Shown here in pieces: positions 13,484 to 61,388 of a stretch of 64,000 nucleotides of DNA. The DNA comes from Limnohabitans sp. TEGF004 (GTDB lineage Bacteria > Pseudomonadota > Gammaproteobacteria > Burkholderiales > Burkholderiaceae_C): assembly GCF_027924965.1 (NCBI RefSeq), contig NZ_AP027056.1, positions 1,550,001 through 1,614,000 on the forward strand. Direction: 5' to 3'. Each line of letters starts with the position of its first letter. The stretch's first letter is position 1. The notes under the pieces are model-generated. The model did no database searches. It was not told where the DNA came from and saw nothing but the letters and a program-made list of their open reading frames with translations. Made by a program: the position numbers and the translations under genes.

Positions 13484-14524
13484 ATGACGGCAGCCACGAT
13501 TCATACTGACGCCGTCATCGTGGGCGCAGGCCCAGTGGGCCTATTTCAAGCTTTTCAGCTCGGGCTGCAAGACATTCGCAGCCACATCATTGATGCACTC
13601 CCCCACGTTGGCGGCCAGTGCGTGGAACTGTACGCAGACAAACCCATTTACGATATTCCCGGCATTCCTGTGTGCACGGGCCGTGAGTTGGTGGCGCAAC
13701 TGCAAACGCAAATTAAACCCTTCGCACCTACGTTTCATCTCAACCAAGAAGTGACCGAAGTCGAACGACTGGACGATGGGCATATCTCTGTTCGCACCTC
13801 CACAGGCCTGTACTTTGTTTGCAAGGTGCTGGTCATTGCAGCGGGCGTGGGCGCATTTCAAGCGCGCAAACTGTCCGTCGAAGGCGCAGCAGAACTTGAA
13901 GGCACACACGTGCATTACCGCTTGGGCGATGCCTCGCGCTTTGCAGGCCAAGACGTGGTGGTGTTGGGTGGCGAAGAGTCTGCCGTGGCGACGGCTTTGA
14001 AACTCACGCTCGAAACAAAAGCACCACGCAGCGTCACGCTGATGCACCGCCGCGATGTGTTCACCGCCGAGCCCGTGCTGCTGCAAGCCATGCGTGATGC
14101 GGTGGCCAGCGGCAAGCTGCAACTGCAAATCGGCCAACCCACCGCCTTGCTGAACACATCCAACCAACTGCACGCCGTGCAAGTGGCCACGCCGGATGGC
14201 CAAACCATCGAGCGCCCAGCACAGCATGTGTTGGCGTTCTTGGGCCTCTCGCCCAAGCTCGGTCCGATTGCCAACTGGGGCTTGGCGATGGAGCGCAAGC
14301 AACTGGTGGTCAACACCGAAACCTTTGCCACCGATGTGCCCGGCATCTTTGCCGTGGGCGACATCAACACCTACCCCGGCAAGAAAAAGCTCATCTTGTG
14401 CGGTTTTCACGAAGCCACCCTCGCCGCTTTTGGCGCGGCCGCCATCGTGCACCCCACACGAAAGACCCTGTTGCAATACACGACAACATCGACCGAGCTG
14501 CACCGCTTGCTCGGACTCGCTTAA
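13484..14524 (+). CDS. Ferredoxin--NADP reductase (thioredoxin-reductase-like type)
   Basis: The 346-residue flavoprotein starts with the FAD-binding motif VIVGAGPVGLFQAF and has a second nucleotide-binding stretch, VVVLGGEESAVATALKL. TDVPGIFAVGDINTYPGKKK marks the C-terminal FAD site. It lacks the CxxC redox pair of thioredoxin reductase, as expected for the TrxB-like ferredoxin-NADP reductases. The start at 13484 fits the family better than an upstream in-frame codon inside fdxA. It lies 23 bp after fdxA and is probably co-transcribed with it. Confidence 0.88.
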   Translation: MTAATIHTDAVIVGAGPVGLFQAFQLGLQDIRSHIIDALPHVGGQCVELYADKPIYDIPGIPVCTGRELVAQLQTQIKPFAPTFHLNQEVTEVERLDDGHISVRTSTGLYFVCKVLVIAAGVGAFQARKLSVEGAAELEGTHVHYRLGDASRFAGQDVVVLGGEESAVATALKLTLETKAPRSVTLMHRRDVFTAEPVLLQAMRDAVASGKLQLQIGQPTALLNTSNQLHAVQVATPDGQTIERPAQHVLAFLGLSPKLGPIANWGLAMERKQLVVNTETFATDVPGIFAVGDINTYPGKKKLILCGFHEATLAAFGAAAIVHPTRKTLLQYTTTSTELHRLLGLA

Positions 14525-14547
14525 AATCCATACCGCGTTAGCAATAA

Positions 14548-14640
14548 CGCATCCGCTAGGGGTGTTGAAGCCGTCACCGACTTCGACTGAGAAAGTCCCT
14601 TTGAACCTGATTGAGGTAATCCTCGCGCAGGGAAGCTTGG
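14548..14640 (+). promoter_or_regulatory. TPP (thiamine pyrophosphate) riboswitch, THI element
   Basis: The conserved core is present in order: AGGGGTG, a P3 hairpin (TTGAAG with CTTCGA), CTGAGA, CCCTTTGAACCTGAT, a short GAGG/CCTC hairpin and CGCGCAGGGAAGC. Spacing agrees with bacterial THI elements. It lies 83 bp upstream of the first TonB-dependent receptor and reads in the same direction. No T-rich terminator follows, so control is more likely at translation. Confidence 0.93.
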
Positions 14641-14701
14641 TCTTACAACGAGGCTCTTCACTCACCAGAGCACACACTCGTTTCAAAGTCAGCCGACCTG
14701 T

Positions 14702-14725
14702 CATAACGTTTAAGGAAACGTCATG
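14702..14725 (+). promoter_or_regulatory. Hairpin enclosing the Shine-Dalgarno and start codon of the first receptor
   Basis: ACGTTT (14706-14711) pairs with AAACGT (14716-14721), leaving AAGG of the ribosome site in the loop. CAT (14702-14704) can also pair with the ATG start codon (14723-14725) across one mismatch. This is a plausible expression platform for the TPP riboswitch, inferred from base pairing only. Confidence 0.5.
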
Positions 14726-16858
14726 GCAAACCATTCGCCATTCTTCAAGGCCACGCGCATTTCTGCGGCAGTGGCGTTTTGCATTGCATCCAACGCTTGG
14801 GCACAACAAAGCCCCACTGAAATCACCATCACCGACAAGTTGCCTGCGCGCGTGTCGGGCTTTGGTGATGTACCAGCGCAAGAGCTGCCCTTCTCCACCA
14901 CCACCATCACCAGCACAACCTTGCAAGACATCGGTGCGCAACGCGTCTCTGATGCCTTGCACTTAGATGCATCGGTCACGGACAGCTACAACTCACCGGC
15001 CTATTGGGACATGCTGAGTGTGCGTGGCTTCACTTTAGACAACCGCTACAACTACCGCCGTGAAGGCTTGCCCATCAGTGCCGAAACCATGATTCCCATG
15101 GACAACAAAGAACGCATTGAATTGCTCAAAGGCACCAGCGGTATTCAAGCAGGCACCAGCTCTCCTGGCGGTTTGGTGAACTATGTGGTCAAGCGTGCGC
15201 CAACAAATGCTGAACAACAAATTCGCAACATCACGATGAGTTACGGTCAAGGTGACAACCGTTTAGTGGCTGCAGATTTGGGCGGCCGCTTTGGCGAGGC
15301 CGCTGAATTTGGCTATCGCTTCAACGTCGCACACGAAGACCTCAACCCCTACATTCGCGACACCAAAGGCCAACGCGATTTAGTTGCGCTAGCGATGGAC
15401 TGGCGCCTTAAGCCAGGCACTGTGATTGATTTTGAATTTGAGCAATCACACCGAGAGCAAATTGGTATCAATGGATATAGCTTGCTCGGAGGTGTGCTTC
15501 CTGCACCCGTTGATCCACGTATTAACTTGACACGCCAACCGTGGGCATTACCTGGCGTTTTTGATGCGATGACGGGCTCGGTGCGTCTACGTCAAGAACT
15601 CGATGCAGGTTGGCAATGGACGACGCAATATGGTGCGCAACGATTAAAAACTGACGATCGTTTGATTTTTGGTTATGGCTGTACAAGCCCAACTGATTAC
15701 ACACAGTACTGTGGAAATGGCGACTTTACGCTTTACGACTATCGCAGCAATAACGAACGCCGCCTGACTGATGCACTAGAAAGCGAGATTTCAGGCCAAT
15801 TAGAAGCAGGTGGACTTAAACATACGCTAGTGGCAAGTGTGTTGCGCCAACGTCAATTAGACAAATTCCCTACGAATCAGTCATACGCTCAAATTCAGGC
15901 GTCTGGAAATGTCGCAACGCCATTCAGCAGCAGCCCCAATCCAGATTTCTCGACCCCCAATTCGAACCGTAGCGAATATGCCACTGAATTGAGCCTGAAA
16001 GATCGTGTCGAGCTCACCAAGAGCACGTCAATTTGGGCTGGATTGCGGCACGTGATGTTTGATCGTAGTAGCGAACGCAATGACCCAGGAAATCCAAACA
16101 GCATGCGTTACACAGGCCATATCAATGCACCATGGTTAGGCGTGTCAACCAAGCTCTCTAGCTTTTTGGTTTATGCATCTCACGGGCACGGCGTGGAGAA
16201 CTTTGTAGTCCCCAACAGCACCAGCACTTATTGGGTCAATGCGGGACAACAACTGGGTGTCGGAAGAAGCCGCCAAACAGAAATGGGGCTAAAAAGCCTG
16301 AATACACAAATCCCTTTGCAATGGCACGCCAACATTTTCCAAATCGAACGTCCTCTTGCCTATGACGATGGCAACGGCAGTCGACTGTTGGACGGCAAGC
16401 AAACGCACCGCGGCATAGAACTAGGTGCGAATTCGAAGATGAGCCAATGGACACTCGGAACAAGCGTGCAATGGTTACACGCTCAAATTTCAGATGTCAC
16501 GCAAACCACTGGCGTTGTCGGCTCAACCCCCCTCAACGTTCCCAAGTTCGTCATGCGCGGCATGGCTGAATACCGCTATGCCAGCGTGCCAGGCTTGCGC
16601 AACGCATTACGTGTGTCACATGAAGGCGAACGCCGCGTCACAGAAGATGGCAGCGTGCAGCTCCCCGCTTGGACGACCCTCGACGCGTCGGCCCACTACG
16701 ATACAAAAGTAAACAACGTGGCATCCACTTGGACATTGGCCATCGATAACGTGGCCGACAAGCGTTACTGGCGGGAGTCGCCCAAACAGTTTGGCCATTA
16801 CTACCTCTACCCCGGAGCCCCGCGCACTTTAAGGGCTAGCGTCCAATTTCGACTCTGA
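14723..16858 (+). CDS. TonB-dependent outer-membrane receptor, TPP-riboswitch controlled (copy 1)
   Basis: The 711-residue protein has a signal peptide ending SNAWA near residue 27 and a TonB-box-like TEITIT. A plug domain follows (LSVRGFTLDNRYNYRREGLP; ERIELLKGTSGIQAG) and then a long beta-barrel ending in VQFRL. By family it resembles TonB-siderophore receptors. The TPP riboswitch directly upstream argues instead for uptake of thiamine, its phosphates or a pyrimidine/thiazole precursor across the outer membrane. The plug is nearly the same as in the next gene, while the barrel and its extracellular loops diverge. The middle of the barrel (about 15400-16400) looks more A+T-rich than its surroundings. 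No inner-membrane thiamine transporter is seen nearby. Confidence 0.88.
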   Translation: MANHSPFFKATRISAAVAFCIASNAWAQQSPTEITITDKLPARVSGFGDVPAQELPFSTTTITSTTLQDIGAQRVSDALHLDASVTDSYNSPAYWDMLSVRGFTLDNRYNYRREGLPISAETMIPMDNKERIELLKGTSGIQAGTSSPGGLVNYVVKRAPTNAEQQIRNITMSYGQGDNRLVAADLGGRFGEAAEFGYRFNVAHEDLNPYIRDTKGQRDLVALAMDWRLKPGTVIDFEFEQSHREQIGINGYSLLGGVLPAPVDPRINLTRQPWALPGVFDAMTGSVRLRQELDAGWQWTTQYGAQRLKTDDRLIFGYGCTSPTDYTQYCGNGDFTLYDYRSNNERRLTDALESEISGQLEAGGLKHTLVASVLRQRQLDKFPTNQSYAQIQASGNVATPFSSSPNPDFSTPNSNRSEYATELSLKDRVELTKSTSIWAGLRHVMFDRSSERNDPGNPNSMRYTGHINAPWLGVSTKLSSFLVYASHGHGVENFVVPNSTSTYWVNAGQQLGVGRSRQTEMGLKSLNTQIPLQWHANIFQIERPLAYDDGNGSRLLDGKQTHRGIELGANSKMSQWTLGTSVQWLHAQISDVTQTTGVVGSTPLNVPKFVMRGMAEYRYASVPGLRNALRVSHEGERRVTEDGSVQLPAWTTLDASAHYDTKVNNVASTWTLAIDNVADKRYWRESPKQFGHYYLYPGAPRTLRASVQFRL

Positions 16859-16879
16859 AGATCAAGTAAAGTCAAAAGG

Positions 16880-19057
16880 ATGAATCGTAAGTCTAGGTTT
16901 TTTGGAGTTCCGCGCGTACAAAGTGCTGTTGCACTTTGTATTGCCGCCACCTCATCGGCTTGGGCCCAGCAAAATCCAACTGAAATCACTATCACTGCGG
17001 AGCCACCCATTTTGGTATCGGGCTTTGATGGTGTGACTCGGCAAGAGTTACCCATCAGCGTCACCTCCATCAGCAACGCCACCTTGCGCGACATCGGTGC
17101 ACAGCGGGTGTCAGACGCACTTCGATTAGACGCCTCGGTCAGCGACAGCTACAACCTGCCTGCCTATTGGGACAAGCTCAGCGTACGCGGCTTCGCACTG
17201 GACAACCGCTACAACTACCGTCGCGAAGGCCTTCCCATCTCTGCTGAAACCATCATTGCGATGGACAACAAAGAGCGTCTTGAATTGCTCAAAGGCACGA
17301 GTGGCGTTCAATCAGGCATCAGTTCACCAGGCGGCTTAGTGAACTACCTGGTCAAACGCGCCCCCACTAGCTCAGGCAAAACCATTCGTGATGTCACACT
17401 AAGCTACGGCCCTGGTGACAACCGTTTGGTCTCGGCTGATTTGGGTGGGCGCTTTGGTGACGGCACTGATTTCGGCTACCGCATCAACCTCGCCCACGAG
17501 GACCTCAACCCCTACATTCGCGACACTCGGGGCTATCGCAACTTGTTTGCCTTGGCGATGGACTGGCGCATCAACAGCAGCAATCGCTTGGAATGGGAGT
17601 TCGAGCAAAGCCACTACGAACAAATTGGCGTCAACTTTTACAGCGTGCTGGGCTCAGACCCAAACAACGGTCGATTTGTTTTGCCAGCGACGGTGGATGG
17701 CACACGCAACATCACGCGTCAGCCCACCTCACAACCTGGTGTATTTGATGGTCTCACCGGGACTGTGCGACTGAAACACCAGCTAGATGATGGCTGGATG
17801 TGGCGCACGCAGTACGGCACACAGCGTTTGCGCGCAGATGACAGACTCACCTATGCCTCTGGCTGCAGCAGCACTCAAACCAAAAGTTTTTGCCTCGCAC
17901 CCATGGGGAATTTTCAAATCCATGACTTTCGCAGTGACAACGAACGCCGTCAAACCGAAGCTGTTCACACAGAACTCAGTGGGCAGGCAGACATTGGCGG
18001 GTTGAGTCACTACATCAAATTCAGCGTGATGCGACAGCGTTACATCAAGCAAATGCCCTACACCGCGGCAGACACGTTATTGGGCAGCACCAACAGCACC
18101 AACGGTGGTTTGACCTCCCCCAGTGGCGCAACCCAATATTGGCCAAACACCAATGCCAGCGACTACAGCACTGAAATTGCCTTCAACGATCACCTGAGCC
18201 TAAGCAAAGCCACCGCGGCTTGGTTGGGCCTGCGCCATACACAACTCAATCGCAGCAGCATCATGACCAACGGTGATGCGATGGTGAAAGACGAACGCGG
18301 CGTCACAACACCGTGGCTGGCGCTGAGTCATCAGCTTGATGCGAATTACCTTATTTATACGAGCTACAGCGAAGGCCTAGAAACGCAATCAGCCCCCAGC
18401 TCAAACAACTACACCAACTCAGGTCAACCACTGCCTGTACTTCGCAGCACGCAGCGCGAGGTGGGTTTGAAAAACCAGCATGAACGAGTTCAATGGCAAG
18501 TGACTTGGTTTGACATCACACGCCCAGCCACAACGGATGCCGGCACTTGCGATACGACCGCGAGTAGCTGCACGCGAAAAATAGATGGCCAAGCCCATCA
18601 CCAAGGCCTAGAACTGAGCGCACAAAACACACTGCAACGCTGGTCTTTCGGCGGCAGCGCCATGTGGCTAGATGCCAAACGTGAAAACGCCACGGTTCAA
18701 AGCGCTCTGAACGGTCAGCGACCAATCAACGTACCTCAATACATTTTGCGTGGCATGCTTGAATACCACTTCGCCAGCGTAACGGGCTTGCGATCTGGCT
18801 TGCGCCTCTCTCGCGAAGGTGAGCGTCATGTCACTAACAAAGACGACGGCAACCTCATTCTCCCCGCCTGGACCACCGTTGATGCCACGACCCATTACGA
18901 CACCAAGGCCAACAGCGTAGCCTCTACTTGGACACTGGCGATTCACAACCTCGCCAACAAGCACTACTGGCGCGAATCGCCCAAGGAATATGGGCAATAT
19001 TTCCTCTACCCAGGGGCACCACGAACCGTTCGTGCAACAGTTCAGTTCCACCTCTGA
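16880..19057 (+). CDS. TonB-dependent outer-membrane receptor, tandem paralogue (copy 2)
   Basis: The 725-residue paralogue starts 21 bp after copy 1, behind an AAAAGG ribosome site, so both are probably under the same riboswitch. It has a signal peptide (SSAWA), TEITIT near the mature N-terminus and a plug domain almost residue-for-residue like copy 1 (LSVRGFALDNRYNYRREGLP). The barrel ends YLYPGAPRTVRATVQFHL. External regions of the barrel, including a Cys-containing insertion around TCDTTASSC, differ from copy 1, suggesting a related but not identical ligand. General annotation by similarity would be 'siderophore receptor'. Confidence 0.87.
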   Translation: MNRKSRFFGVPRVQSAVALCIAATSSAWAQQNPTEITITAEPPILVSGFDGVTRQELPISVTSISNATLRDIGAQRVSDALRLDASVSDSYNLPAYWDKLSVRGFALDNRYNYRREGLPISAETIIAMDNKERLELLKGTSGVQSGISSPGGLVNYLVKRAPTSSGKTIRDVTLSYGPGDNRLVSADLGGRFGDGTDFGYRINLAHEDLNPYIRDTRGYRNLFALAMDWRINSSNRLEWEFEQSHYEQIGVNFYSVLGSDPNNGRFVLPATVDGTRNITRQPTSQPGVFDGLTGTVRLKHQLDDGWMWRTQYGTQRLRADDRLTYASGCSSTQTKSFCLAPMGNFQIHDFRSDNERRQTEAVHTELSGQADIGGLSHYIKFSVMRQRYIKQMPYTAADTLLGSTNSTNGGLTSPSGATQYWPNTNASDYSTEIAFNDHLSLSKATAAWLGLRHTQLNRSSIMTNGDAMVKDERGVTTPWLALSHQLDANYLIYTSYSEGLETQSAPSSNNYTNSGQPLPVLRSTQREVGLKNQHERVQWQVTWFDITRPATTDAGTCDTTASSCTRKIDGQAHHQGLELSAQNTLQRWSFGGSAMWLDAKRENATVQSALNGQRPINVPQYILRGMLEYHFASVTGLRSGLRLSREGERHVTNKDDGNLILPAWTTVDATTHYDTKANSVASTWTLAIHNLANKHYWRESPKEYGQYFLYPGAPRTVRATVQFHL

Positions 19058-19092
19058 AAATGGCGCAAAAAATGCGCTATAATTTTTTGTAT

Positions 19093-56680: not shown

Positions 56681-56756
56681 TGGAGCGGGAAACGAGGCTC
56701 GAACTCGCGACCTCAACCTTGGCAAGGTTGCGCTCTACCAACTGAGCTATTCCCGC
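56681..56756 (-). tRNA. tRNA-Gly (GCC), copy 1
   Basis: A 76-nt cloverleaf on the minus strand has acceptor GCGGGAA/TTCCCGC, anticodon GCC and encoded CCA. Its sequence is the same as the tRNA at 61313-61388. Confidence 0.96.
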
Positions 56757-61312: not shown

Positions 61313-61388
61313 TGGAGCGGGAAACGAGGCTCGAACTCGCGACCTCAACCTTGGCAAGGTTGCGCTCTACCAACTGAGCTATTCCCGC
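61313..61388 (-). tRNA. tRNA-Gly (GCC), copy 2
   Basis: A 76-nt cloverleaf identical in sequence to the copy at 56681-56756, with anticodon GCC and encoded CCA. It is the first of a Gly-Cys tRNA pair. Confidence 0.96.

What the first reader, a model, noticed from the sequence alone, without database searches (positions are those of the whole stretch)
14548..19057. TPP riboswitch in front of two tandem TonB-dependent receptors
A complete-looking THI element precedes a pair of receptors that family similarity alone would call siderophore receptors. The riboswitch predicts repression by thiamine pyrophosphate, so the pair more likely imports thiamine, thiamine phosphates or a pyrimidine/thiazole precursor through the outer membrane. 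No thiamine synthesis gene or inner-membrane carrier is adjacent, so the partner transporter must lie elsewhere. TPP-regulated outer-membrane receptors are known in some groups, but a tandem pair of this receptor subtype in this lineage deserves attention.
Basis: partly seen in the sequence, partly recalled or inferred. Interest (0 to 1): 0.8.

Follow-up and report, generated by a model that had tools for sequence, protein, structure and literature searches.

The report
Riboswitch-controlled paired vitamin B1 receptors
A freshwater bacterium that appears unable to make vitamin B1 keeps two outer-membrane uptake receptors side by side behind an RNA switch that senses the vitamin, a clear example of a known kind of system in which the doubling is the unusual part.

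Summary
Window 14548-14650 is a TPP riboswitch (RF00059, 58.7 bits, gathering score 54.3), the only one found in the genome. Two adjacent TonB-dependent receptors follow, R1 and R2, 56% identical, which family models would call siderophore receptors. In 44 near-complete genomes of the genus, the 10 with this arrangement lack detectable ThiC, CytX, ThiD, ThiG and ThiE; each of the other 34 has at least one. Such cells need the finished vitamin (thiamine or its phosphates); imported precursors could hardly be used. The receptor is common in the bacterial family: of 40 orthologue loci examined, 40 have a TPP riboswitch by a model built here and 38 have it directly upstream. A Variovorax case is in print (PMC10409787, passages). 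The tandem is what is peculiar to this lineage: an old duplication, plug 82% and remainder 51% identical. The inner-membrane partner is unresolved; a PnuC-family carrier is a candidate but may serve nicotinamide riboside. Verdict: real, thiamine reading supported, new member of a known kind.

The parts
14522..14527 (+). TAAAAT, a -10-like element overlapping the stop codon of the upstream gene; inferred start region of the riboswitch transcript
   Evidence: by eye TA[AG]AAT stands some 20 to 50 bases before the aptamer in the window and the 30 loci printed, also where the sequence upstream differs; the consensus scan does not report it as a sigma-70 promoter, so this is inference
14535..14550 (+). 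GCGTTA-GCAA-TAACGC hairpin at the 5' edge of the aptamer
   Evidence: read from the sequence; many relatives show a different but complementary pair there (by eye, no statistics)
14548..14650 (+). TPP riboswitch aptamer (THI element)
   Evidence: RF00059 58.7 bits, gathering 54.3
14699..14728 (+). predicted expression platform: hairpin that encloses the Shine-Dalgarno AAGGA and pairs the AUG start codon of R1
   Evidence: 96-base leader folds with z-score -3.0, 2 of 200 shuffles as good; motif in 48 of 49 leaders; in 31 aligned leaders 91.4% of cells paired against 23-49% with slid strands, but 90.8% in the column shuffles and only one covarying cell
14723..16858 (+). R1, TonB-dependent receptor
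   Evidence: Pfam PF07715 and PF00593, TIGR01783; same place behind fdxA and FNR as the riboswitch-linked receptor of other Limnohabitans
16880..19057 (+). R2, tandem TonB-dependent receptor, 56% identical to R1
   Evidence: PF07715, TIGR01783; its clade contains two receptors that end riboswitch-led lux/thi operons
19060..19080 (+). terminator-like hairpin after R2
   Evidence: 9 found in the region against 6.6 (sd 2.4) expected, so weak

Best explanation
R1 and R2 are TonB-energised outer-membrane importers of vitamin B1 itself (thiamine and/or thiamine phosphates), made when the cell runs short of TPP. When TPP binds the aptamer, the leader favours a hairpin that hides the ribosome-binding site and start codon of R1, and translation of the pair falls (inferred). 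The genome has lost the synthesis route, so the pair is the regulated entry point of its B1 supply. ThiL, which is present, completes TPP from thiamine monophosphate. Two receptors are kept because their outer barrels differ in ligand or ligand range (inferred). Shown by sequence: riboswitch, receptors, missing genes, conservation, duplication. Inferred: ligand, direction of control, roles of R1 against R2, inner-membrane step.
For: RF00059 match, the only one found in the genome. Of 44 genus genomes at least 90% complete, the 10 receptor genomes have none of ThiC, CytX, ThiD, ThiG, ThiE (five have one weak hit, E 1e-12 to 5e-11; the four such rows shown are 26% identical to the ThiD part); each of the other 34 has a match at E <= 1e-120 to at least one. 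Of 30 genomes behind named receptor loci (three of them already in the genus set, completeness not told) 26 also lack all five; in the four exceptions the receptor lies in thi operons. ThiL over its cut-off in G000 (312.5 bits) and in 41 of 44. Orthologues at 339 bits or more in 109 of 200 family genomes; 40 of these loci fetched, 40 with a riboswitch by the model, 6 of 8 tried over the Rfam gathering score. Conserved leader motif in 48 of 49. No Fur consensus within 3 mismatches in the window.
Against: By sequence the nearest solved structures are siderophore receptors FemA, BauA and FhuA. No binding or expression data. In Bacteroides thetaiotaomicron the riboswitch-linked transport operons did not change significantly with thiamine (PMC5613172, passage). 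One receptor genome (G055) has no ThiL over the cut-off, perhaps an assembly gap. TPK was found in 0 of 44 genomes, so free thiamine would need another kinase. The start-codon hairpin is no better than column shuffles, since its columns hardly vary. Two of 8 family loci did not pass the Rfam gathering score.
Confidence: 0.86

Rival explanations
1. The pair are siderophore receptors that happen to lie behind a TPP riboswitch.
For: TIGR01783 over the cut-off; closest solved structures by sequence are siderophore receptors.
Against: Riboswitch at 40 of 40 family loci; receptor inside thi operons in several genomes; no Fur-box match within 3 mismatches in the window, best 11 of 19 in the leader.
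Confidence: 0.05
2. The receptors import a thiamine precursor (HMP-type pyrimidine or thiazole), as might be so in the salvage operons of sister genomes.
For: R2-type receptors end lux-ABC-SDR-thiD-thiO-thiG-thiE operons in L119 and L125; L. planktonicus II-D5 has thiE-thiD-cytX-receptor (L115).
Against: G000 and 9 other receptor genomes show no ThiD, ThiG or ThiE; the same query found a ThiE only 34% identical in G085 and G086, so a diverged ThiE would probably have been seen. ThiM, TenA and unrelated TMP synthases were not tested.
Confidence: 0.08
3. The tandem is a plain gene-dosage duplication without difference in ligand.
For: Plug 82% identical; one receptor genome (G006) has a single receptor.
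Against: First and second copies are split by one branch with SH-aLRT 100 in a tree of 20, so both have been kept apart for long; outside the plug they are only 51% identical.
Confidence: 0.35
4. Inner-membrane step: the PnuC-family protein and the NadR-like kinase behind eno carry and phosphorylate thiamine (PnuT-like).
For: PF04973 in 10 of 10 receptor genomes and over the cut-off in 0 of 34 others, and in 25 of 30 genomes behind named receptor loci; neighbours conserved; no TPK and no ThiP over the cut-off.
Against: The protein passes TIGR01528, nicotinamide riboside transporter. NadA is over its cut-off in 0 of 44, so the whole genus may salvage NAD precursors. No TPP riboswitch at these loci (0 hits in 28 loci, some overlapping). 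Three receptor genomes without thi genes lack it (G097, G099, G102). The 10 genomes are related, so this may be one event.
Confidence: 0.35

Closest known systems
[quoted passage not shown]
   Same: TPP riboswitch control and a TonB-dependent receptor predicted to import thiamine; Variovorax is a Comamonadaceae (recalled). The order cytX-thiD-thiO-thiG-thiE-receptor in L227 and L228 resembles that operon
   Different: Variovorax is described as making thiamine, with the receptor in a biosynthesis operon; here synthesis genes are missing and two receptors stand alone. Its protein was not aligned here
OMthi (BT2390) of Bacteroides thetaiotaomicron (PMC5613172, passages)
   Same: TPP riboswitch before a predicted TonB-dependent thiamine transporter; the double transporter mutant (with pnuT) grew poorly at low thiamine
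   Different: Bacteroidetes, single receptor, makes its own thiamine; the single OMthi mutant grew like wild type. No sequence comparison made here
omr1 (PMC10881298, passages)
   Same: TonB-dependent binding protein near a TPP riboswitch in SAR86 and Flavobacteriales clusters, proposed B1 transport
   Different: other lineages; no sequence comparison made here
FhuA, FemA and BauA type siderophore receptors
   Same: domain order and profile similarity
   Different: ligand class, and iron control instead of TPP control (recalled)

Membership tests
TPP riboswitch RF00059 | covariance score over the gathering threshold with full-length match | tested here: met
   58.7 against 54.3 bits, positions 1-105
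TPP riboswitch RF00059 | binds TPP and changes expression | not testable with these tools
   needs in-line probing and a reporter
TonB-dependent receptor | plug domain plus beta barrel | tested here: met
   Plug in both, PF00593 in R1 only, TIGR01783 nearly full length in both. The structure prediction was not finished when last asked
TonB-dependent receptor | TonB box near the mature N terminus | tested here: inconclusive
   EIT invariant at residues 33-35 of R1 after a signal-peptide-like start; assignment recalled, no tool scored it
Siderophore receptor (functional class) | iron (Fur) control and siderophore ligand | tested here: inconclusive
   no Fur consensus within 3 mismatches in the window (consensus recalled); ligand not testable
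Thiamine TonB-dependent receptor (OMthi/omr1 kind) | controlled by a TPP riboswitch | tested here: met
   riboswitch at the expected place; control itself not measured
Thiamine TonB-dependent receptor (OMthi/omr1 kind) | sequence homology to OMthi or omr1 | not tested
   those sequences were not fetched
Thiamine TonB-dependent receptor (OMthi/omr1 kind) | transports a thiamine species | not testable with these tools
   needs uptake or growth assay

The most novel reading that the evidence does not exclude
The tandem is a two-channel B1 intake: R1 and R2 take different forms of the vitamin (for example thiamine and its phosphates), and the free form enters by a PnuT-like carrier and is trapped by a NadR-like kinase acting as a new thiamine kinase that feeds ThiL.
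Probability: 0.15. Interest if true: 0.65.

Novelty: new member of a known kind. Interest (0 to 1): 0.47.

Why it matters
Limnohabitans are described as globally ubiquitous in freshwater, and a 2025 paper treats them as strains without thiC that depend on pyrimidine uptake by ThiV, ThiY or CytX (PMC12637900, abstract and passages). The data here point to a further group that lacks the whole route and depends on intact B1 through a regulated outer-membrane gate. Within one genus a TPP riboswitch precedes four different supply strategies (thiC, cytX-thi, lux-ABC-SDR-thi, receptors), which makes the order and cost of vitamin dependence testable.

Tried and rejected
Siderophore function: rejected as first choice because the riboswitch is found at every orthologue locus examined (40 of 40). 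Precursor import in this genome: disfavoured. ThiBPQ as partner: ThiP over the cut-off in 0 of 44 genomes. TPK: 0 of 44. A conserved gene downstream of the receptor in 25 loci plus the window: none; the widest cluster covers 6 sources at differing distances. Iron control: no Fur-box match. NAD auxotrophy as an explanation of the PnuC pattern: NadA is over the cut-off in 0 of 44 genomes, with and without PnuC, so it does not explain the split but keeps the nicotinamide riboside reading alive. Literature, read as listings unless said: TonB-dependent with TPP riboswitch (4 papers), Limnohabitans with thiamin and auxotroph, THI element with TonB, PnuT or thiamine kinase (15 of 60 listed), thiamin with TonB-dependent receptor and auxotroph, with Gammaproteobacteria, LuxE/LuxC (15 of 19 listed), Limnohabitans with TonB and vitamin, with Betaproteobacteria. 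No listed title names this Limnohabitans receptor pair. Passages were read of PMC10409787, PMC10881298, PMC12637900, PMC5613172 and PMC5955585; PMC12632268 was searched and held none of the terms.

Full report
Observation. A covariance search scores window 14548-14650 as a complete TPP riboswitch, 58.7 bits against a gathering score of 54.3. It is the only one found in the genome that holds the window (2.77 Mb, listed as 100% complete). Two open frames follow on the same strand: R1, 14723-16858, 711 aa, and R2, 16880-19057, 725 aa. Both carry a TonB-receptor plug and pass the siderophore-receptor subfamily model TIGR01783, without reaching the cut-off of any named equivalog. A profile of 18 such receptors finds FemA, BauA and FhuA as closest solved structures.

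Genus comparison. Of 84 genomes of the genus, 72 have a TPP match at E <= 0.001, three of them two (that search used stricter filters that can lose weak matches). I fetched the surroundings and classed the 75 riboswitches by the first recognised gene behind them: cytX 31, luxE 22, the receptor 11, thiC 8, thiE 1, none recognised 2, one of which has only 31 bases of contig left.

Thiamine genes. One query joining ThiC, CytX, ThiD, ThiG and ThiE was run on the 44 genomes at least 90% complete. The 10 receptor genomes (G000, G001, G003, G006, G024, G027, G028, G038, G045, G055) have no match, or one weak one at E 1e-12 to 5e-11; the four weak rows shown are 26% identical to the ThiD part and are read here as another kinase. 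Each of the other 34 has at least one match at E <= 1e-120; they do not all have all five, for example G031 shows ThiC and otherwise only a 27% hit. An eleventh receptor genome, G076, is below 90% completeness and was not in this set. The same query on 30 genomes behind named receptor loci gave none of the five in 26 (at most a weak kinase-like hit) and thi genes in 4: G085 and G086 (L. planktonicus II-D5 and strain DM1), G088 and G094. Completeness of these 30 is not told. ThiL is over its cut-off in 41 of 44, including G000; not in G035, G055 and G056. TPK is in 0 of 44.

Wider family. A scan of named genomes gave 54 loci, titled Limnohabitans, Comamonadaceae, Burkholderiaceae, Burkholderiales or Betaproteobacteria. 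With a model built from 19 genus riboswitches the riboswitch is found in 48 of 54; in 46 it lies directly before the receptor. In L115 and L117 it leads a thiE-thiD-cytX-receptor run; L119, L125 and L162 are pieces of lux/thi operons with the receptor last; L128, L149 and L151 begin inside the receptor. In 45 of 54 the FNR-like gene stands upstream. In 200 genomes drawn from the family, 109 have an orthologue at 339 bits or more and 4 more only weaker matches of 207 to 225 bits (at most five candidates a genome were scored). All 40 have a TPP riboswitch by the model, 38 directly before the receptor, the other two (L227, L228) at the head of a cytX-thiD-thiO-thiG-thiE-receptor operon. As a check, 8 of the 40 were given to Rfam: 6 pass the RF00059 gathering score, L257 and L264 do not; all 8 also have a tRNA within about 140 bases after the receptor, as in the window. 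So the neighbourhood FNR-riboswitch-receptor-tRNA is an old one, though FNR is within 1 kb on the same strand in only 21 of the 40.

The tandem. In the family sample only the window's genus shows two copies of this receptor group (G000 and G027). Among 20 receptors of the genus (two of them fragments) the first and second copies are split by one branch with SH-aLRT 100. In a 77-row tree (quick method, no bootstrap) the copies form a group of 21, sister to those of other Limnohabitans (99), and the R2 group (100) also contains the receptors of the lux/thi operons L119 and L125; the first copies do not form one clade there, since G001 and G027 stand apart at an unresolved fork. So the duplication is older than these genomes. 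R1 and R2 share 82% of the plug (89 of 109) and 51% of the rest (274 of 541). I read this as specialisation in the outer, ligand-binding part; it is inference.

Regulation. The leader folds into a hairpin that hides AAGGA and the start codon (z -3.0). The motif AGCCGA[AC]CTG[CT]CAT...[AG]TGGCA is present in 48 of 49 leaders, two of which belong to the L115/L117 operons. In 31 aligned leaders 91.4% of cells pair against 23 to 49% when the strands are slid, but column shuffles give 90.8% and there is one covarying cell, so covariation does not prove the hairpin. Control of translation start is the best guess.

Inner membrane. A PnuC-family gene with a NadR-like kinase, behind genes that I take by recall for kdsA, eno and ftsB, is in 10 of 10 receptor genomes, over the cut-off in 0 of 34 others of the genus (two fragments at 22 to 25 bits), and in 25 of 30 genomes behind named receptor loci. 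It passes the nicotinamide riboside model, NadA is over the cut-off in 0 of 44, no riboswitch is near, and three receptor genomes without thi genes lack it. So it is a candidate partner and no more.

Known or new. TPP-linked TonB-dependent receptors are in print for Bacteroides (PMC5613172), for SAR86 and Flavobacteriales (PMC10881298) and for Variovorax (PMC10409787); passages seen. In Bacteroides the transport operons did not respond significantly to thiamine in RNA-seq, which counts against taking control for granted. The window is therefore a new member of a known kind; the tandem together with loss of the synthesis genes is its distinctive trait. That the genus is Limnohabitans is inferred from the named locus of strain Jir61 (L153), which has the contig length and coordinates of G006.

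Noticed in passing
L048:1699-7929, L101:1690-7668; luxE is first behind 22 of 75 genus riboswitches: A TPP riboswitch leads luxE-luxC-ABC ATPase-permease-NMT1/THI5-like binding protein-SDR, often followed by thiD (antisense) and thiO. LuxE, LuxC and an SDR could reduce a carboxylate to an alcohol, perhaps a salvage route to the HMP pyrimidine (inference). A literature search for LuxE, LuxC, thiamin and riboswitch listed 15 of 19 papers, none on this by title.
   Followed up: partly
L099:1501-1642, also in L097, L100, L101, L102, L103, L104 (142 nt) and L098, L105 (152 nt): Nine of 75 genus aptamers carry an insert (39 bases in the 142-nt ones) with predicted hairpins between the 5' strand of P4 and P5, next to the pyrophosphate-sensing side (recalled). 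The 62 bases around it in L099 fold with z -5.7, and pairing survives sequence changes by eye. Five of the 11 receptor riboswitches have it; the window's own does not. Ligand response of this variant is open.
   Followed up: partly
G000:C1:1053811-1054347 and kinase L174:7159-7785: PnuC-family carrier and NadR-like AAA_28 kinase behind eno, in 10 of 10 receptor genomes and over the cut-off in 0 of 34 others of the genus.
   Followed up: partly
genus, 44 genomes: Quinolinate synthase NadA is over its cut-off in 0 of 44 near-complete genomes (one fragment in G012), so the genus may depend on NAD precursors.
   Followed up: no
L115, L117: L. planktonicus II-D5 and strain DM1 have thiE-thiD-cytX followed at once by the receptor, with a ThiE only 32-34% identical to that of the window's genus.
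   Followed up: no
window 56684-56756 and 61316-61388 (-): Two tRNA genes printed with identical sequence about 4.6 kb apart, each with another tRNA nearby.
   Followed up: no
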